A stretch of DNA of 64,000 nucleotides from Massariosphaeria phaeospora (lineage: Eukaryota; Ascomycota; Dothideomycetes; Pleosporales). Where the stretch lies: NCBI GenBank assembly GCA_011032825.1, contig JAADJZ010000020.1, positions 372,001-436,000 of the forward strand. Direction: 5' to 3'. The notes under the pieces were generated by a model. The model was not told where the DNA came from. It did not search any database and saw only the letters and a program-made list of their open reading frames with translations. Numbering within the stretch: the first letter of the stretch is position 1; the number at the start of each line of letters is the position of its first letter. Below are positions 22,237-61,035 of the stretch, piece by piece. The position numbers and the translations under genes were made by a program.

Positions 22237-23132
22237 GAGACGCCTTATCTGCCGCCCATTACGGTCCTTGAGCAATTGATCGACTTTCTAAAACGCTAGA
22301 ATTCGGGGTTATTCATCAACGCCTAGATTCGCAAGTCAAGAGGTTAGGTTCAAGATAAACTAAGCAATTTCGGCGCAGGTACCCCTGATGTCTGGCATTC
22401 TAAGACTGAAGCAAGAACAATGTGCTCGCATTGCCTGAGTTCGAAATAGAACAAGAAGTTATAAGCTCCATGGATGCCGAAATACATTTTACCGGTCCCG
22501 ATAGAGTGATGCATCTAAGTGGACAGAAAACGGAACGACTTCGGAGCAAAGTGGTATGTACAGGGTTGGTATAGATTATAGACAGAATCCATTAGAAGCT
22601 CAAAGAATGCAACGCATGGGGACGCCTGACGCACATGCGAGCCCCCCTCTTCCCACCCAAGGACTCCTAAAGAAGACCAATCCGAACTGGCTTCAAACTA
22701 TCTTCCAAACTCTTTCTCCCACTTCTAACCTCCAACTGACACTTTACTTCTGACTTGAATCATGTCGAGTTGAACTAGACAGGCAACAGCAGGTAACCAA
22801 TTAGCAAACACCTATAACCCTTATGGATATATCACGGGGACAATGATATGGAAATACGTTAGTCATGTTATCAGACAATCACTATTCGCGTGGATTTATG
22901 ACCATATCAATGTCAATTGCTGTAGACAGCAAACCAGCGCAGCTCACCTCACCTAAAACTATAAAACCCCGCCGGCTATCTCGATTTTTCTACCATAGAC
23001 CTCACAACCTTCGAGGCTAAATTCGCTTTACCTCGACGTAAGTGGCCGAAATCCTACGCACAGGGCATGATTCACTGCTAACATCGGCCTGTCTCTAGGA
23101 TCTCTAGCCATACGTGATCCAGTCAACAACTA
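22237..23132. other. intergenic region with promoter of the next gene
   Basis: AT-rich. A TATA box is at 22960 and a 5' UTR intron at 23038-23098 (GTAAGT, branch CTAAC, TCTCTAG). No other gene seen. Confidence 0.55.
22960..22966 (+). promoter_or_regulatory. TATA box TATAAAA
   Basis: TATAAAA lies 173 bp before the ATG at 23133. A pyrimidine-rich stretch and ACC/CAC sites about 30-45 bp downstream fit a transcription start, and the 5' UTR intron (23038-23098) follows. Confidence 0.5.
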
Positions 23133-39310: not shown

Positions 39311-40399
39311 ATGTGTCAATTCATCTACCAAAGCCACGCCTATTGCCCCCACCGCACCCTCCTCACCAGCCCCCAAACCACCGTCCTCTGCGACCTAGCT
39401 CTGAACTTCAACCTCCGCCAAGGCATCGACAGCGCACCCGTCTCCTGCATGCCACTCTCCCACAACCCCACCTCCGCCTCTCAGATCGCGTGGCACAACC
39501 TAGTCCTGACCCCCTGCCCCGCCTGCCAGCCCTCCGACCTCTCCGTCGAAGCCGCCTACCTCGCGCCGCCGCCCTCGTCGCGCTCCACATACTCCGTCTC
39601 CAACATCGAAGCCGTGCAGCGCCTAGCGCGCGACGTCGACCGCCGCGCCTACACGGCCGCGCAGCACATCGCCTTCTTCCACGAGCCGCGCATGCAGGCC
39701 GTGCTGCCGCTGCTCCGCAACGCCTGGCTGCGCGCCTGGCTGTCCGGCCAGGACCCGCATAATGACCGCTTCGCTGCGCTGTTCGGAAATGCGCTCGGCG
39801 AGGCGCGCGACTGGGCAAGGCATCTTCGGATGTATGTGGAACTCGGGGCGCCGCGCGATATGTTCGTGAGGGGGTATGCGTTTGTCAAGGAGATGCTTGT
39901 GAGGGCTGCGGAGAAGATACGCGCGTTTGGGGGCTTGATGCGTTTGTTGTGGGAGATGGATGAGGACGAGCAGATGGGGTTGGAGCGCGCGGCGGGGGAG
40001 TTCCGCGGATGGGTGCAGGGCGTGGATGAGGATGAGGAAGTGCAGGGGCGACAGCAAGTCCCTGCGCAGTTTGCGTATCTGAAGTTCGACGACGACGAGC
40101 GGCTTGTCAGCAGCATGCGCCACGACATGGAGAAGTCGCGAGATGTGGTGCATGAGCATGAGCGTCCAGCCGTGCGCGTCCGCGGCGCCAGCCAAGTCAA
40201 CAACGCTCTCTGTGACGTCACGTATGCGGCGGTGGTGCATAAGTCGCCAGCTGCACATACACATTCACATGTGCTCGCTGTGCCGAAGCGCGCGCTCTCG
40301 CCGTCTGCGCTGCGGTCGCCGCCGCCGGGCAAGAAGCGCATGCTGAACTTTAAGCGGTTGAGCGTGGGGATTGAGCCGTATGATGAGCGGTATGATTAG
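39311..40399 (+). CDS. conserved Pezizomycotina protein, Cys-rich N-terminus, helical core
   Basis: Intronless, 362 residues from ATG in TCCACCATGTG. The N-terminus MCQFIYQSHAYCPHRTL and later TPCPACQPSDL have Cys/His pairs that may form a small metal site. The middle is Ala/Arg/Leu-rich and strongly helical (RMQAVLPLLRNAWLRAWL). The tail is basic (PPPGKKRMLNFKRLSVG). The upstream frame is open but the consensus start decides. Function unknown. Confidence 0.75.
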   Translation: MCQFIYQSHAYCPHRTLLTSPQTTVLCDLALNFNLRQGIDSAPVSCMPLSHNPTSASQIAWHNLVLTPCPACQPSDLSVEAAYLAPPPSSRSTYSVSNIEAVQRLARDVDRRAYTAAQHIAFFHEPRMQAVLPLLRNAWLRAWLSGQDPHNDRFAALFGNALGEARDWARHLRMYVELGAPRDMFVRGYAFVKEMLVRAAEKIRAFGGLMRLLWEMDEDEQMGLERAAGEFRGWVQGVDEDEEVQGRQQVPAQFAYLKFDDDERLVSSMRHDMEKSRDVVHEHERPAVRVRGASQVNNALCDVTYAAVVHKSPAAHTHSHVLAVPKRALSPSALRSPPPGKKRMLNFKRLSVGIEPYDERYD

Positions 40400-40664
40400 A
40401 TTGAGATATGGGTCCATAGGTAGATTGATGCGGCATACAGCAGGCTGTTAGTTAGACAGGATAGGAGTGTGCTTTTCCGGCGGGCTTGCTGCGGGTCAGT
40501 GGGCGCGAGGGTGGTTCTCCGGTTGCAAGACGATTGAGGAGTAGGGTTAGAATTCAATGGTAAAGGTGCTGGTTGAAGATTGTATTGATTGATTGATTGA
40601 TTAATTGATTATTTCGTTAATGTGAGTTGTAGACAGTGACGCACTAAAGTAAACTCGATCAGAC

Positions 40665-42173
40665 TTATGTAAAAGACGGGATATTATCCGGACGACCAGG
40701 CCATATAACCTCCAACTCAATCCTTTCCAGCTCATCCAATTCCTCCAAACTCGGCTCCCCCATAGTCCCTCCAAGACTCATAACACTGCGCCGGAACCAC
40801 AGCGTAATGTCCGCGGCCTCGAGCGCCGCCCACGGAATCCGCGTATGCCACGAGTAGTCGTCATCATACTCCCGCAGCCAGACCTCCTTGAGATTGACGA
40901 AGTACGTATGTCGCGAATCAGCGAGCTCCTGCAGCAGGGGGATGATCTCGTCGTTGACGTGGTACATGTCGAGGACCTGCAGGCTGGCGGGCAGCTTAGT
41001 CGTTATGCGCGGGGGGCTGGCGGGCAGCTTCTCAGTCCGGTACTGTATGTATGAACTGCCCCAACTCCTGGCCTCGTCGACGATGGCCTCGGAGTATTTG
41101 AGCGCCCACTGCGGTAGCAGGACGGATTTCAGGCAGGCGAATTGCCGCAGTCCAGGGGATGGCGCTGGGTAGGGGACTTCCGAGTAGATCCTCCCTTGGT
41201 CGATGCCGCGCTCGTTGGGAACCCAGAGTTGCAGATGCTCCAGCGTTGGCGACAGCGACGCCATCATCTTGTATAGATTGCAGAATGACGCTTGGTCCCA
41301 GAGAGCCTCGGAATCGGGGTACGCAGTCGACGCCGCGAACTCGTTGAAGTATTCTCCCGTCCGCCGGAGATAGCCATACTGAGCATAGCCGGGCAGCTGC
41401 AGCCGGAACTTGGTCAAGCGGTCGAACTTTCGCAGGAACATGGTCAGGAGCGTGTCGTCGTCGTCGTCGGGCCTCGGAAGCAGGACTGAGCCGTTGCAGT
41501 TTAGGGTGAGTTCTCGGACCTTCGAAGACAGCGCGTCCGTGGAAATGCTTGGGCGAAGGAAGATGTTCCCGAGCTTGAGCGTCTGGAGGCTAGGCAGCAT
41601 GCACCAGTTCCAGTGGAGCTCTGCGTATGGAGAAAGAGACAGGTGTTTCAGTGACGCGAAAACGGGTGCGGATAACAGCGTCGAGAGACCTGCGTCGTGT
41701 AACGAAAAACATGACAGTGCCCGCTCTTGCACATCCAACCGTGTGAGATTGGTGGCTAGATGGATGAGCACGGTCATGGTTGTGTTGATATCCCACTTCT
41801 CCAAGTCCTGCCAGTCATCTGGGCGTAGTGTATCGGCTTTTACACTGTCCAAGATCCGACTGACGATAGCTTCACGATCATGCGACGCGCTACGCTGCTT
41901 CTTGAAGGCTTCGTCCCACCCCGTATTCTGGCCGATCTCGAGAGACCGCACTTTTGGTAGGAAATTTCGACATTGCAGAAGTGTGCGTGTGAAGCGGATG
42001 AACTTCTCCCAGGTGTTGATCACGGAGATGTCGTTATAAAGGGCTTCCTGCGCGGGGCCTCGGAAACGCCTCGAAGCCAGCGCGAGCATCCGAAGATCTT
42101 GGTGCGGTAGATTTGATCCGATTTTGAGCAATAGCTCATCGGTGAGGTCACTGAATTGAGCCCTCGCCTTCAT
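40665..42173 (-). CDS. F-box protein with leucine-rich region
   Basis: Intronless, 502 residues. An F-box occupies about residues 8-48 (FSDLTDELLLKIGSNLPHQD, then LALASRRFRGPAQEALY). Leucine-rich steps follow (LPSLQTLKLGNIFL, TLEHLQLWVPNE, SLQVLDMYHV), as in F-box/LRR substrate adaptors of SCF ubiquitin ligases. Substrate unknown. A TATA box lies about 135 bp upstream of the ATG. A (TGAT)n tract is found at 40585-40610, just beyond the 3' end. Confidence 0.85.
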   Translation of the reverse strand: MKARAQFSDLTDELLLKIGSNLPHQDLRMLALASRRFRGPAQEALYNDISVINTWEKFIRFTRTLLQCRNFLPKVRSLEIGQNTGWDEAFKKQRSASHDREAIVSRILDSVKADTLRPDDWQDLEKWDINTTMTVLIHLATNLTRLDVQERALSCFSLHDAGLSTLLSAPVFASLKHLSLSPYAELHWNWCMLPSLQTLKLGNIFLRPSISTDALSSKVRELTLNCNGSVLLPRPDDDDDTLLTMFLRKFDRLTKFRLQLPGYAQYGYLRRTGEYFNEFAASTAYPDSEALWDQASFCNLYKMMASLSPTLEHLQLWVPNERGIDQGRIYSEVPYPAPSPGLRQFACLKSVLLPQWALKYSEAIVDEARSWGSSYIQYRTEKLPASPPRITTKLPASLQVLDMYHVNDEIIPLLQELADSRHTYFVNLKEVWLREYDDDYSWHTRIPWAALEAADITLWFRRSVMSLGGTMGEPSLEELDELERIELEVIWPGRPDNIPSFT

Positions 42174-42597: not shown

Positions 42598-44796
42598 TTA
42601 AGAGCTTCCTATCCCTGCACCTACAGGGCAGTTGGGCACATTCCCCTGCCAGGCAATCCTGGCATAGGCCGGCAAGTAGCTGTTCGTGGTAAAGCTCTTG
42701 TCCAGATAATACACTACGTCGTTATCTTTATAGTCCCCTCCTACATCTGGCTGATTCAGTGCATCAGTAACATCGCGGGCGATGAAATCTAGCATAACTA
42801 CATCCACGCTCTCAGGAGCCGTTCCATCCGCTGGGAATGACCCATTTGCTTGCAAGTTCTCAGGCTGTGGAAACGCGGGAATTGTCGAGTGCACTGTATC
42901 GTCTCCGTCCGTACCAAAATCGTCGGTCGTCGTGTATCCAGGTGAGGGAGTTGTCGATTGGCGACGGATTAGACGTCCGCCTGCTTTGGATCTCTTCTTC
43001 AGCCCATCATAATCATGAGTTAACGGAGGATCGATACAGATATCCCGATCCGCCAAGACTGGCGAAAAGTTGAAGTCGGCGGTCGCTAGGTCGCGCTTCC
43101 TTTTCTCAGACGCGCCGGCGTTGAGAATGTCGAGGACCTTCGAGGCTTGCGCATATGGCACATTTGGGATAAACTGGAACGCATCCGTAAAAGGTGATAC
43201 TATATAGGAGTCGTCGAGCGTGAAGGGGCCCTTGGCCAGATCGAATCGGACACTGCCGGTGTTGATGATAATGATACGTGGAATATCCTTGCGTGTATCG
43301 TTTACGACGACGGTGGACAGCGCTATTTGCAAGAGCTTGAAGATGTTCCCTTCCTCGAGAAAGGGCTTACAGACTTGGCAGTACGTTCGCGGCGCGCAAC
43401 CATACAAATCTGTGAGGTTGAGCCTCGCTCGCGCAGAGGTGATCTCAGATGTCACTGCTAGCCCTTTCAGAGTGTCGAATGAAGTATAAGGCTGACTGCC
43501 CTCCGCGTGATAAGAGAATGTCTGGCGGTTCCAGTCCAGATACCGCCGCGCGTAGCGCAGATTCGACGGCGTAGTAGAGATAGGGACGCTTGCGTTTCCG
43601 GTTCCTGTACTTGGAGGCGCAATGGCGCTTCGGGTAGGGTTTGGAACGCCCTTAGGGTTCTTACTCGCTGTGCATGTCGAAGATTTGATGCCAGACACGG
43701 CCAGCCATCCCAGCGTCTCGCAGTATCGCCCTGATTCAAGCCCTGTGGCTTTGTTGTCATACACGACGAAGTCCCTGATGTGTGTGTGACCGCCGAAAGC
43801 CTGGATTGGCACATCTGGCCTTATCTTGCGGATGGTGTTGAACAATGTGCCAAAGGTACTGCTAGTCACATTCGTCCGCACGGGATTGTGTCCGATGACC
43901 ACAAACAGATCGACTGGTTCGGTATAGTTGACTGCCTGCAGGAACCACTGCTCTTGGACCAAAGACGCTGCCTTGATGACCTTGGAAACATTGGAGTTGC
44001 CGGTGAAGTCAAAGAGGACGCCGAAAGCCATGATCCTCAGCCCTGGAAGTGTCAGCGTATACAAATTTGGTTCTAGCGGTACATACCTTGCTCGGTCGTG
44101 AAATACCGGTACTTGGATCCAATGTATTCGAACTGTCCCGTCGCTGGGTTGATAATCTGCACATTGCTAGTAAGGTATCTGTCACCATAGACTTTTGAAA
44201 AGTTGCTGAAGGTTTGGTATGCGATTTCTGTTACGTAGAGCTCATGGTTTCCAATAGTCAAAAGATCGTAGTCAATGTTCTCAAAGATGGCGTTGGAGAT
44301 GTTGCCGTTCGGGGTTGTGGCGTCGGTCAAACCAGCGCCATCATGCAGGTCCTGCATCCGTTAGCCACGCCGTCTAGTCGATAGAATATCCACGCGTCAT
44401 CTCGGATAACCCCTTGATTATGTCCGTGTCGCACAGTCACAGAATACGCACCCCTGTGTCAACCATGAGCATGTCCACGCCCAGATCTTGGGCCTTCTTC
44501 TTCATATGCTTCGTGAAGCTCACGTAGTCTCCCCAGTCTGCTCCGTAGTTCTGCTCTTTGATGTGCCCCTCCAGCCAGCCATGCGTATCGGTGGTATGTA
44601 GGAAGTTGATCTGACCCCATTCAAGGGGACCTTTCGGACCTGCTGTCGCATTCTGAGCATCAGGCTGCATTCGTCGGACATTACGAGTCAGTACAACATC
44701 ATCGCGCAATGGTCCGTAGCAGCCATGACTCCCTCCGCAGGCGAAAGAAAATCCAACAAGAGAGGAAGCCGTAGCAAGCGTAGAGACACGCATCAT
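42598..44796 (-). CDS. secreted 5'-nucleotidase-like metallophosphoesterase
   Basis: Exons on the minus strand: 44796-44452, 44351-44087 and 44042-42598, giving 684 residues; introns are 100 and 44 bp. A signal peptide (MMRVSTLATASSLVGFSFA) precedes a calcineurin-like phosphoesterase domain. Metal ligands appear in order: HTTDTHGWL (D-x-H), DTGDLHDGAG (GD split by the first intron), GNHELY (GNH), VVIGHNPVR and GGHTHIRDF (GHTH). The C-terminal domain has IIIINTGSVRFDL, like the substrate-binding domain of 5'-nucleotidases, and several N-glycosylation sites. It resembles yeast YHR202W and fungal secreted or vacuolar phosphoesterases. Substrate inferred to be nucleotides or related phosphoesters. 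Confidence 0.88.
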
Positions 44797-56350: not shown

Positions 56351-57324
56351 ATGACTGCAGTCACTGCGGAAAAGACTGCGGACGCAGCGATGGAGAGCGC
56401 TCCTCGTAAACGTCGCAAGGTGGGCTACGAAAAGTGAGTACAAGTAGCGTATACTGCCGAAAAAGCGACTAATCCACGGTCAGCTACTACAACTCCGAAA
56501 CCTTGTCCGACGTCACGATCCGCTTCGGCCAGGAATACGAAGAAGTTTTCCATAGCCATAAGATCGTACTCTGCGCCAAGTCGGCTTTGTCGCCTGCTTG
56601 TAGATCTGCTTCACGATGTTGCGGAAGCCATCTCCATAGTTCGCCTCTTTTTTGGTTCCTACGATCTGGACTAGGTATTTGGCCATTGAATCTTCTAGGA
56701 AGGTTTGAAGATACTCGATGAGAGTAGGGACTTCGTACTTAGCAGCTAAGCGGTAGACGTCGATAGAGTAGAGAACCCGATCGACAGTCCCTTCTTTGGA
56801 AGAACAATTGATTTTGTCGTGGTACATGTAGTAGAGTACTTCCTCGAGGAGACCGGTGTCTTGGTCGTCCAACTTGATCTCGCGGGGACCGGTTTCCTGT
56901 CCAGGGTTAGCACTGCACCTCAGATCGCGATCAACTCTTCCGTCTTGAGCAGCCCACTTACTTCCGAGTCTTCAGTAAGCGCTTTTTCAAACCAATGGGA
57001 CTTCTCAGCACCCTCTCGTAGAATCCCTCCTCTGCGCACTGGAGGCTTGCAAAGCCATCCGCATTTTCGAAGGTTCTGGACTGCTGTATGATCTTCTCAG
57101 GACCACCACTGAGGAGATTCCGGAATTCGGCCGCGATATCTTCCTGGATGTGATCAAATGGACACAAGGTTTTCAATACGTGGGACTTGTCCGCAAAATA
57201 CACTGCTACAGATGCAATCAAAGCTGGATGGCACATTACAAGGGGGATGGCCGCTGTATGGAGTGTACACTGCAGGAAGCTCGCGAGGAAGCTCGCGAGG
57301 AAGGTCGGGAGGAAGGTAGATAGG
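56351..57324 (+). pseudogene. BTB/zinc-ribbon gene broken by an internal inversion
   Basis: Exon 1 is 56351-56433, the intron 56434-56483, and exon 2 starts at 56484 with YYNSETLSDVTIRFGQEY and VFHSHKIVLCAKS. After 56582 the plus strand is nonsense and stops at 56721. The missing middle is on the minus strand (56998-56583): HWFEKALTEDSE, a normal intron (GTAAGT..GGACAG), then REIKLDDQDTGLLEEVLYY to IVKQIYKQATK. The plus strand resumes at 57004 with QHPLVESLLCALEACKA and ends at TAG 57324 with the zinc ribbon CYRC..CMEC and an EAREEAREEGREEGR tail. Flipping 56583-56998 between AAGTC (56578) and GACTT (56999) restores frame at both junctions. It is a paralogue of 58412-59364. Confidence 0.85.
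56583..56998 (-). other. inverted 416-bp segment inside the BTB gene
   Basis: Encodes the middle of the BTB protein on the wrong strand, with its intron intact. It is flanked by a 5-bp inverted repeat, AAGTC 56578-56582 and GACTT 56999-57003. No frameshift or stop is seen within it. Confidence 0.85.
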
Positions 57325-58411
57325 AAGCTCGACGACAGGTATACTAAGCATAGCATGTATCTGGTCAGGTCGTAGGGTATTCGAGACATCCATGCCGTCG
57401 GTTGTAGCTCTTGACTAGAAGACTATCTACAACTTGTATTTTTTCTTTAGGGTTGTAGTACCAAACTAATACTCCATACAGCTGTAGCCTTCTGGATTCA
57501 CATTGCCACGTTAGCATCATTGTTTTGGAGACGCTCAGATTAACCTTGTAGTTCTGGAGATCTCGTTCGTAAGAGACTCTGTACTAATGTCTAAGTAGCC
57601 TCATCGTCCTCTCCTCACCGCAGAGTCATGCAACTCGCCCCGTCTCCTAGCAAGAATACCGCCAGCGCCTGTTACTCTTGGGCCTAACTAATCCTCCACT
57701 CAATCCCTGGTGTACTCTGTATAGCTGCTTTGGCTTCGATATGCCCCGAAGTCGAAGTATTGACACATATATGATGGTACACTGGACTCAGTCCGGATTT
57801 TGAACTCGGGTTGCATCGCAGCAAGTTGACCGGGGAAGATTGCTGGGTAGCTACATTCTATGGCTAGAGAGCGGGCGAGTTCGAATAGACGAATTTTAGA
57901 GCCGTTGTAGGCGAAAATGTTGAAGCCTTGTGCAGATGTCAGTTCCAGTTGGGGTAGAAACCCTCAGGTAGATCGAGAGGCTGATTTACTGGACGTTGAG
58001 TAGCACACTATCCTACTCGCGACGAGAATCATAATTCCCGTTATTGTGTATTTACCGGCCTAGGGCCTGTGTGTATAACAAGAGCGTGCAAGGGAAGCTT
58101 GACTAAAACAAGACCAGCTCATTGCGACAAGCTCACAACGAGTCTTTCACTCGTGCTCGAAACATCCCGAAACTTATTCAACGCAGTGAAAGATGGTGGC
58201 ATCTAGCTCACCGTAAGTGTATCCCATCAGTGACTCCGCCACTAGAGGGATCCGCGCTACGAAATGACAGTGAAAGCATCGGCAGTGGGCACTCATCGGT
58301 ATTTCTCCGTCTCCGATCCTGCGGCTATTCCACAAATTTTCGCTTGTCGAGCTTCACCACCTTCCACCACCCCACCTCCCACCCCAACCCAACGCGACAC
58401 TCTTCGGAAGC
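57325..58411. other. region between the two BTB genes
   Basis: Contains the minus-strand remnant 57700-57963. The rest shows no gene; a 12-bp (GAAGCTCGCGAG)-like run lies at 57277-57340 at the end of the first BTB gene. Confidence 0.5.
57700..57963 (-). pseudogene. 3' exon remnant of an unrecognised gene
   Basis: The minus-strand frame, bounded upstream by TGA at 57966 and ending at TGA 57702-57700, reads LELTSAQGFNIFAYNGSKI, LFELARSLAIECSYPAIFP, GQLAAMQPEFKI and YMCQYFDFGAYRSQSSY. The amino-acid pattern is clearly protein-like, but there is no start. An AG at 57965-57964 could be an acceptor. No upstream exon was found up to 58250. Family unknown. Confidence 0.4.
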
Positions 58412-59364
58412 ATGGCGACCGAGGCAACAGGAAGCTCAGTCGTCGTCGACGACGGCGAGAAGAAGGAATGCGTGAGCGACGCCCACAAGCGGCCCCAGCT
58501 AGGTTTCGACTGGTGAGTTCAATCAATATCGTTGAGATCCTCGCTAATATTACCAGGTACTGTAACTCCAAAGAGTTCTCCGATGTTACGATCCGATTCG
58601 GTGCGCAGGGCGAGCGTGTATTCCATGCACATAAAGTCGTTCTCTGTGCCCGTTCGCACTGGTTCCGGGCCGCTCTCAGTGGAAACTTCCAGGTAAGAAC
58701 TTTGCACTTCCAAGGTGCGCCTACACTAACCGATACGGCCACAGGAAGGGCACTCGAAGGAGATAGTGCTACATGACGATGATCCTGACGCGCTGCAAAA
58801 GGTGCTCGAACTTGCCTACGGAGAGGAAGACCCGTATATTGATCCGCCATCGACTATCCAAGAGGGAACTCATGAAGCGGTCCTCTATTATCTCGGTCTT
58901 CTTGAGGTGCCGACAAATACGACTTCGGTCCGCTTCTTCGTCGTGAAATCAACGCTCACCACCATCATCAGCTGATCATGTTCCATAAGATTGCTCCGGA
59001 TACAGACTTGAATTTCAAGGTCGACCACTGGCGGCAAGTGATTCACAAGATCTATGATATGCCTGTGGGACTCAGCAATGAAGTGCGGAGGTCTCTCTAC
59101 ATGGTGATCGCGGGAAACGGGATCTACGGGAAGGACATGGGTCCAGTGATCAAGGAAGTGGCGAAAGAGCACGCCGAGTTCGGTCGAGACCTCATGGTAT
59201 ATATGCTCGGAAATATGCAGTCCGGCGGACCAACGTCAACCACATGTAGATTGGGACTACTGGATAAACACATTTGTTCCAGCTGCGGTGTTGATTCGTG
59301 GATGTCCAGGGACAATGTGGCGTTTAGTTGCACACACTGTGGCTACTTCGACGAGGAAATCTAG
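58412..59364 (+). pseudogene. BTB/zinc-ribbon paralogue with a one-base frameshift
   Basis: Exons are 58412-58512, 58557-58692 and 58745-59364. The BTB part reads YCNSKEFSDVTIRFGAQ, RVFHAHKVVLCARSHWF and KEIVLHDDDPDALQKVLELA. After LGLLE (58906) the annotated frame stops at TGA 58974. One missing base at about 58907 would restore ADKYDFGPLLRREINAH and the rest to TAG 59364. The C-terminus has a four-Cys zinc ribbon (ICSSCGVD..FSCTHCGYF). It is the same architecture and orientation as the broken gene at 56351-57324, about 1.1 kb away: a tandem pair. It could also be a sequencing error. Confidence 0.75.
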
Positions 59365-60026: not shown

Positions 60027-61035
60027 ATGCCTGGCGAAACAACCAAAGTCGTACCCTTGACCTGCCACGGTCACTCGAGGCCCGTCCCGCACATACACTT
60101 CTCGTCCCTCGTCGATGAGGACCAGTACTACATCATCTCGGCATGCAAGGACGGCAACCCCATGCTGCGGGACGGAACAACCGGCGACTGGATTGGCACT
60201 TTTCTCGGACACAAGGGCGCTGTCTGGCAGGCCAGGCTCTCGTCCGACGCCTCACTTGCGGCAACGGGGTCTGCGGACTTCTCCGCGTATGTCTTTACAC
60301 CGAGCGCGACATACTCCGCTAACCCTGCATAGTAAAGTGTGGGACACCCATACCGGCGAAGCGCTCCACACGCTGTCTCACAACCACATTGTCCGCGCGG
60401 TAGCATTCCCGAACCAGCCCTCGCCGCAAATCTTGGCCACTGGTGGCATGGAGAAGAAACTGCGCATCTTTGACCTCTCTTCCGCGTCTTCGACACCGCA
60501 AAGCTACGAGATCGGCTCCGGTGTACATGGCGGCACCATCAAGTCCATCGTGTGGACGGCGGATCCGAACATTGTGATCACGGCAGCAGAGGACAAAAAG
60601 ATCCGATGGTGGGATCTGCGATCGCAGTCCTCGGTCGGGGAGTACGCGGTTGAAGGAGTCGTGGGCACATGCGAGTTGGATAATACCTCCTCGGATGGCG
60701 TGCTTAGTGTTGCCGCTGGAAACAGCGTCTACTTCTTCAACAGCAAATCGCCCGGCTCTCTTGTCAAGAGCATCAAAACACCGTACGAGATTGCCAGTGT
60801 CGCGCTCCACAGTGGCCAGCGGAAGTTCGTGACTGGCGGTAGCAGTCAGAACGACACGTGGGTGAGAGTGTGGGACTTTGACGAGGAGAAAGAGTTGGAA
60901 ACGAACAAAGGACACCATGGACCGATCTGGTCTACTAGCTTTTCCCCTGATGCCAAGCTGTATGCGACAGGCAGTGAAGACGGCACTGTGAAGCTCTGGA
61001 AGTTCACCAGTGGCCCGTATGGTCTTTGGAGATAG
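60027..61035 (+). CDS. WD40 protein, STRAP/eIF3i-like
   Basis: Exon 1 is 60027-60286, the intron 60287-60332 (GTATGT, branch CTAAC, GCATAG), and exon 2 60333-61035, giving 320 residues. The WD repeats can be followed through LGHKGAVWQARLSSDAS, ATGSADFSAKVWDTHTG, ILATGGMEKKLRIFDL, EDKKIRWWDLRS, TWVRVWDFDEEKELE and LYATGSEDGTVKLWKF. The start PLTCHGHSRPVPHIHFS and the end WKFTSGPYGLW match the STRAP (serine/threonine kinase receptor-associated protein) group, close to eIF3i. In animals STRAP assists SMN and signalling complexes; the role in fungi is little known. Confidence 0.85.

What the first reader, a model, noticed from the sequence alone, without database searches (positions are those of the whole stretch)
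56351..57324. A BTB gene split by a precise 416-bp inversion between 5-bp inverted repeats
Seen directly: N- and C-terminal coding parts lie on the plus strand, while the middle (with its own intact intron) lies on the minus strand at 56583-56998. The segment is bordered by AAGTC and GACTT. Flipping it in place restores the frame at both junctions (CAKS-HWFEKAL and KQATKP-TSQHPLVES) with no stop or frameshift in between. So the break is recent, is an assembly error, or is a reversible switch. A gene held in an 'off' orientation would be unusual in a fungus.
Basis: seen in the sequence. Interest (0 to 1): 0.92.

Follow-up and report, generated by a model that had tools for sequence, protein, structure and literature searches.

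The report
Fungal BTB gene broken by microinversion
The middle 416 bases of a small fungal BTB-domain gene have been turned round in place between two 5-base inverted repeats, which probably killed the gene recently; it looks like an accidental small inversion rather than an on/off switch.

Summary
A BTB-domain gene at 56351-57323 has its ends on the plus strand and its middle (56583-56998, 416 bp) on the minus strand, between AAGTC (56578-56582) and GACTT (56999-57003). The two halves of the Pfam BTB domain are found on opposite strands. They tile on an Alternaria protein that also contains the WD40 (STRAP-like) protein encoded downstream here, which gives the original order independently. 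In this genome the neighbouring paralog and eight other BTB loci have both halves on one strand; the focal gene is the only exception among those testable. Codon phase agrees at both junctions by coordinates. No second copy was found in the 42-Mb assembly. A 5-bp repeat at the breakpoints is more than chance gives (0.5-0.6% of breakpoint pairs). Most likely a one-off replication or repair error left a young pseudogene. A reversible switch is unlikely: the repeat at the borders is only 5 bp. An assembly error is possible; no reads were available. The neighbouring BTB paralog also has a frame break, so the pair may be dispensable genes being lost.

The parts
56351..56433 (+). Exon 1 of the BTB gene (ATG to 5' splice site)
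   Evidence: Open from ATG; splice site GTGAGT at 56434 read
56434..56483 (+). Intron 1 (50 nt, GTGAGT...CTAAT...CAG), outside the inversion
   Evidence: Read by eye; not supported by transcripts
56484..56582 (+). Exon 2, first part: N-terminal third of the BTB domain, up to ..HKIVLCAK(S)
   Evidence: PF00651 positions 5-34 (the query began at 56473 and so held 11 intron bases); 0 of 500 shuffles reach its score against the neighbour paralog, P0013 and P0011
56578..56582 (+). Left 5-bp inverted repeat AAGTC
56583..56998 (-). Inverted segment, 416 bp
   Evidence: Opposite-strand halves of one BTB domain
56962..56997 (-). Exon 2, rest: HWFEKALTEDSE, now on the minus strand
   Evidence: Its first 9 residues (with S) align where the N piece ends in the neighbour paralog, P0013 and P0011; 0 of 500 shuffles each. 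Too short for codon usage (0.1; other strand 2.8)
56897..56961 (-). Intron 2 (65 nt, GTAAGT...GCTAAC...CAG) inside the inverted segment
   Evidence: Sequence; the neighbour paralog has an intron at the matching place, read by eye
56585..56896 (-). Exon 3, first part: C-terminal part of the BTB domain, 104 codons without stop
   Evidence: PF00651 positions 53-107; best codon-usage frame of six (25.4, next -24.5); aligns to P0013 residues 63-131, 0 of 500 shuffles
56999..57003 (+). Right 5-bp inverted repeat GACTT
57000..57323 (+). Exon 3, rest: C-terminal region with a Cys4 pattern (CYRC...CMEC) and a tail coded by a 12-bp repeat; ends TAG
   Evidence: weak match to the neighbour paralog (1 of 500 shuffles reach it; its other-strand reading 18 of 500) and to P0011 (0 of 500); none to the P0013 stretch used. 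Codon score 1.1, below the other strand's 11.1
58412..59364 (+). Neighbouring tandem BTB paralog, all parts on the plus strand in the original order; one-base frame break near 58908 (start codon read by eye)

Best explanation
A single accidental microinversion broke this gene. Most likely, during replication or repair of a break, a DNA end switched to the opposite strand at the 5-bp inverted repeat AAGTC/GACTT, copied the 416 bp between the repeats in reverse, and returned at the other repeat (microhomology-mediated template switching or break-induced replication). This cut a BTB gene into plus-minus-plus pieces. The plus-strand reading now stops after about 106 residues (stop at 56719-56721), a third of the way into the BTB domain, so the gene is a young pseudogene. 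Shown: the inversion in the assembly, the original order, the exact 5-bp repeat, no second copy found, pieces without stops. Inferred: the molecular mechanism, loss of function, youth. The stated confidence is for a one-off inversion that broke the gene; for the copying mechanism as such I would say about 0.55.
For: BTB halves on opposite strands. Pieces tile on Alternaria P0013: N to residues 17-50, H to 50-58, M to 63-131, each with 0 of 500 shuffles reaching the score. Of 34 loci tested (tblastn, E up to 0.05), 24 gave a hit and 10 had both halves within 450 bp; the focal gene is the one opposite-strand case, the neighbour paralog and 8 other loci are same-strand only. Phases agree at both junctions. 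Inverted repeat of 5 bp or more at breakpoint pairs: 0.51% (random) and 0.62% (local). In PMC8755829 all 59 definite human-chimpanzee microinversions (17-33 nt) are flanked by inverted repeats of 3-75 nt, 28 of them by 4-7 nt, 45 of 59 with no other difference; the authors propose microhomology-mediated break-induced replication. No stop or frame break in 864 nt of pieces; 95% bound on neutral divergence 1.9-3.8% for indel/substitution ratios of 0.15-0.05. One DNA match in the genome.
Against: 416 bp is over ten times longer than the microinversions in PMC8755829, and its authors doubt template switching at repeats of only 3-4 nt. No uninverted allele of this gene was found: two protein searches with the middle piece gave none. 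Age is bounded only under a neutral model that assumes an intact gene before. The C-terminal piece has no Pfam match, and its codon usage is better on the other strand (11.1 against 1.1). The M piece is weak against P0011 (10 of 500 shuffles reach its score). Inverted repeats of 6-7 bp lie within 60 bp of the borders though not at them (longest GGCTTTG 56583 with 57050). The breakpoint test is one event at P about 0.005.
Confidence: 0.82

Rival explanations
1. Assembly or library artefact: the strain carries the normal order and the assembled sequence was turned by chimeric reads or a processing step.
For: No reads could be examined. The neighbouring paralog has a one-base frame break, which could be sequence error and would make the local sequence less trustworthy.
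Against: Both junctions keep codon phase and share only 5 bp of repeat; assemblers mis-turn segments between long repeats, and whole-genome amplification chimeras usually give one junction with a deletion (both recalled, not from a call). The contig is 775,840 bases long in a 51-contig assembly.
Confidence: 0.1
2. Reversible switch: a recombinase or recurrent recombination flips the segment so that the gene is alternately on and off.
For: Precise flip, pieces without stops, frames that agree at both ends; fungi do have reversible inversions (S. sclerotiorum MAT, 3.6 kb, 250-bp repeats; Hansenula polymorpha MAT: title and start of abstract seen).
Against: 5 bp of inverted repeat at the borders and none longer there, no unusual fold (z 0.60), the same pair at similar spacing at 3 other places in the window, one copy in one orientation in the assembly. 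PMC8755829 quotes 50-250 bp as the minimum for homologous recombination. Recombinase genes were not searched for.
Confidence: 0.02
3. A variant of the best explanation with another mechanism: two double-strand breaks, one in each repeat, with the freed piece rejoined backwards by microhomology-mediated end joining.
For: At 416 bp two breaks are less implausible than at 20 bp, where PMC8755829 rejects them; 5-bp microhomology fits end joining as well.
Against: Cannot be told from template switching by the product; needs two breaks in one short stretch and recapture of a 416-bp fragment with codon phase kept.
Confidence: 0.25
4. The arrangement is old or functional: the pieces are separate genes, or the turned segment is expressed from the minus strand.
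For: The minus-strand middle is open and keeps a good intron; its codon usage is the best of six frames.
Against: The minus-strand frame that leads into HWFEKAL (ORF 57096-56920) holds no methionine; the N, H and M pieces are parts of one BTB domain that stays together in paralogs and in Alternaria.
Confidence: 0.03

Closest known systems
Human-chimpanzee microinversions (Potapova, Kondrashov, Mirkin 2022, PMC8755829)
   Same: Turn in place, inner edge of a short inverted repeat at each border
   Different: Those are 17-33 nt and were seen by comparing two genomes; this is 416 bp, inside a fungal gene, and inferred from gene order
Sclerotinia sclerotiorum MAT inversion (PMC3574095)
   Same: Segment turned in place between inverted repeats in an ascomycete; one gene is truncated by it
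   Different: 3.6 kb, 250-bp repeats, segregates 1:1 in progeny; nothing here suggests recurrence
Neighbouring BTB paralog (58412-59364) and the BTB parts of Alternaria proteins P0011 and P0013
   Same: Same domain order; same place of intron 2 in the paralog; the STRAP-like protein follows
   Different: All parts on one strand; the paralog has its own frame break; P0011 and P0013 are single predicted proteins that join BTB and WD40, read here as merged gene models

Membership tests
Microinversion at short inverted repeats | Segment turned in place, flanks unchanged | tested here: met
   Opposite-strand domain halves; collinear order in paralogs and Alternaria
Microinversion at short inverted repeats | Perfect or near-perfect inverted repeat with inner edge at the borders | tested here: met
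   Exactly 5 bp, adjacent to both borders
Microinversion at short inverted repeats | Inverted segment copied without other change | not testable with these tools
   No uninverted allele of this gene was found to compare
Microinversion at short inverted repeats | Length of tens of nucleotides as in PMC8755829 | tested here: not met
   416 bp; a size range of that study, not a rule of mechanism, so the claim is 'works like' rather than 'is one of that set'
Reversible inversion switch (S. sclerotiorum MAT type) | Long inverted repeats that allow homologous flipping | tested here: not met
   5 bp at the borders
Reversible inversion switch (S. sclerotiorum MAT type) | Both orientations in progeny | not testable with these tools
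   One assembly only
BTB/POZ domain protein | PF00651 above its curated cut-off | tested here: met
   Each half alone, 22.3 and 22.1 bits against 20.5
Pseudogene | No full-length product | not tested
   Inferred from the sequence; no expression data

The most novel reading that the evidence does not exclude
The inversion segregates or recurs in the population, so that the BTB gene exists as on and off alleles that interconvert through a 5-bp repeat: a new kind of gene switch in a fungus.
Probability: 0.03. Interest if true: 0.8.

Novelty: new member of a known kind. Interest (0 to 1): 0.3.

Why it matters
It is a well-resolved inversion of hundreds of bases inside one gene, with 5-bp inverted repeats at the borders. 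If confirmed with reads it would carry the short-inverted-repeat pattern described for primates (PMC8755829) to a fungus and to a size over ten times longer, and show one way in which members of a gene family are lost. It is not evidence for a new regulatory system.

Tried and rejected
Protein searches with the middle piece found no relative (2 and 9 word-sharing candidates, none scored); the same database does hold Dothideomycetes proteins, so the gene is too divergent or too narrow for that tool. Own-genome searches found the C piece only at the gene itself and the middle piece there plus three weak hits. A fold that could bring the repeats together: none unusual (z 0.60). Longer repeats: none of 12 bp or more at the borders; 6-7 bp inverted matches exist within 60 bp of both borders but not at them. 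Coding score: clear for N and middle, not for H (0.1 against 2.8 on the other strand) or C (1.1 against 11.1), so C rests on its place, its Cys4 pattern and weak homology. Literature searches on microinversions or intragenic inversions in fungi returned 1, 0, 3, 4, 0 and 5 papers; none of the listed titles and abstract beginnings describes such a case, and of them I opened only PMC8755829. A search on BTB gene families in Dothideomycetes was seen as a listing only and not used; of the 58 papers matching, 12 were listed. Organism not named: the 5.8S search gave one match with only 39 of 1325 candidates scored; in the top 20 relatives of the STRAP-like protein (79-86% identity) most named rows are Pleosporales by my recall.

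Full report
What is there. The window is C13:372001-436000 of a 42.1-Mb, 51-contig assembly. The host is a filamentous ascomycete: the WD40 (STRAP-like) protein downstream matches Dothideomycetes, mostly Pleosporales (Zopfia, Periconia, Lophiotrema, Alternaria and others; identity 79-86% in the top 20 rows; placement of names from recall). At 56351 a small gene starts: exon 1, a 50-nt intron, then ..YYNSETLSDVTIRFGQEYEEVFHSHKIVLCAKS, the first third of a BTB domain. At 56583 the reading is lost. The continuation, HWFEKALTEDSE, a 65-nt intron and 104 further codons, lies on the minus strand from 56997 down to 56585. The C-terminal region resumes on the plus strand at 57000 and ends at TAG 57321-57323. 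The turned stretch is 416 bp, bordered by AAGTC and GACTT; the repeat at the borders is exactly 5 bp.

Was the order once different? Four tests. (1) Pfam BTB: the plus-strand piece matches positions 5-34 and the minus-strand piece positions 53-107, both over the cut-off; the C piece has no Pfam match. (2) Outside order: two Alternaria proteins, P0013 and P0011, hold a BTB domain followed by the WD40 protein that lies downstream in this window; I read them as merged gene models of neighbouring genes. On P0013 the pieces tile: N 17-50, H 50-58 (sharing one serine), M 63-131, with 0 of 500 shuffles reaching each score, while N and M read on the other strand score like shuffles (374 and 471 of 500). 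On P0011 the order is N 18-50, H 50-58, C 107-146; there M is weaker (10 of 500 shuffles). C does not match the P0013 stretch used (residues 1-132) (all). (3) Inside order: the tandem paralog has HKVVLCARSHWFRAALSGNFQ in one plus-strand exon and an intron at the same place. In 34 BTB-related loci of the genome (tblastn, E up to 0.05), 24 gave a hit and 10 had both halves within 450 bp. Nine have only same-strand pairs (one of them, L010, is the neighbour paralog again); the tenth, L001, holds the same-strand neighbour and the opposite-strand focal gene. (4) Codon usage: N and M score best of six frames on their called strands (12.8 and 25.4); H and C do not (0.1 and 1.1 against 2.8 and 11.1 on the other strand). 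C therefore rests on weak homology to the paralog (1 of 500 shuffles; its other-strand reading 18 of 500) and to P0011 (0 of 500), and on a C-x2-C..SWM..C-x2-C pattern shared with the paralog.

Phases. The turned sequence was not built. By coordinates, the plus frame before the left border leaves two bases and the minus frame's next codon begins one base in from the segment's end; at the other border two bases are left and one base stands before the plus frame of the C region. Both junctions therefore close a codon.

The borders. Of 400,000 random breakpoint pairs in the window 0.51% have an inverted repeat of 5 bp or more, and of 370,020 pairs inside the gene 0.62%. The 5-mers themselves are ordinary: the same pair at 410-420 bp occurs at 4 places in the window (shuffle mean 0.65, 0 of 100 shuffles reach 4). 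No repeat of 12 bp or more borders the segment. Within 60 bp of both borders the longest inverted matches are 7 bp (56583 with 57050) and 6 bp, none at both borders. No unusual fold was found (z 0.60).

How it most likely arose. The 59 definite human-chimpanzee microinversions are all flanked by inverted repeats (3-75 nt; 28 of 59 have 4-7 nt), almost all with inner edges at the borders, and 45 of 59 show no other difference; the authors explain them by microhomology-mediated break-induced replication and allow template switching for longer, perfect repeats (PMC8755829; abstract and sections 6 and 7 read). The present case has the same anatomy at 416 bp. Two breaks with backward rejoining would give the same product and cannot be excluded.

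What it does. The plus-strand reading runs into a stop at 56719-56721, about 106 residues in; the minus-strand frame that leads into HWFEKAL holds no methionine. Loss of function is the simplest reading; no expression data were available. The pieces hold no stop or frame break; if the gene was intact before and neutral since, divergence since loss is bounded at 1.9-3.8% depending on the indel rate assumed. No second copy was found in the assembly. The neighbour paralog has a one-base frame break near 58908, so the pair may be a family segment under loss; or the local sequence may hold errors, which is the main reason to keep an artefact in mind.

Not a switch. Reversible inversions exist in fungi: the S. 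sclerotiorum MAT segment (3.6 kb) flips between identical 250-bp repeats and truncates MAT1-1-1 (PMC3574095; abstract and section 17 read), and Hansenula polymorpha switches mating type by inversion (title and start of abstract seen). PMC8755829 quotes a minimum of 50-250 bp for homologous recombination. Five base pairs and a single orientation in one assembly give no support for a switch; I did not search for recombinase genes.

Verdict. Confirmed observation, ordinary cause: an inversion inside one gene that probably killed a BTB gene. Its size and the precise short repeat make it a good specimen, worth one read-mapping check.

Noticed in passing
58412-59364: A tandem BTB paralog with the usual part order; its reading frame shifts by one base near 58908, between stretches that are coding-like on both sides (..LYYLGLLE / ADKYDF..), so it is a second broken BTB gene or a sequence error.
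   Followed up: partly
60061-61035: The WD40 (STRAP-like) gene lies downstream; at least 3 of the 120 listed database relatives (two Alternaria, one Pycnora) also hold a BTB domain, which suggests that a BTB gene is an old neighbour whose model was merged with it.
   Followed up: partly
57274-57331: A 12-bp tandem repeat (4.8 copies, AGGAAGCTCGCG) codes the AREE/GREE tail at the end of the BTB gene and runs past its stop codon.
   Followed up: no
22333-22756, 40241-40666, 43769-44194: Three further AAGTC...GACTT pairs at 410-420 bp, with the focal one more than shuffles give; probably chance found after the fact.
   Followed up: no
L037 (G000:C23:1474287-1474440): The one 5.8S rRNA match found (39 of 1325 candidates scored) lies in sequence that looks very AT-rich by eye, as repeat-induced point mutation would leave.
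   Followed up: no
G000, 41 matches to PF00651: The genome holds at least 41 BTB-domain matches, 4 of the 41 with an in-frame stop (which may be introns read through).
   Followed up: no
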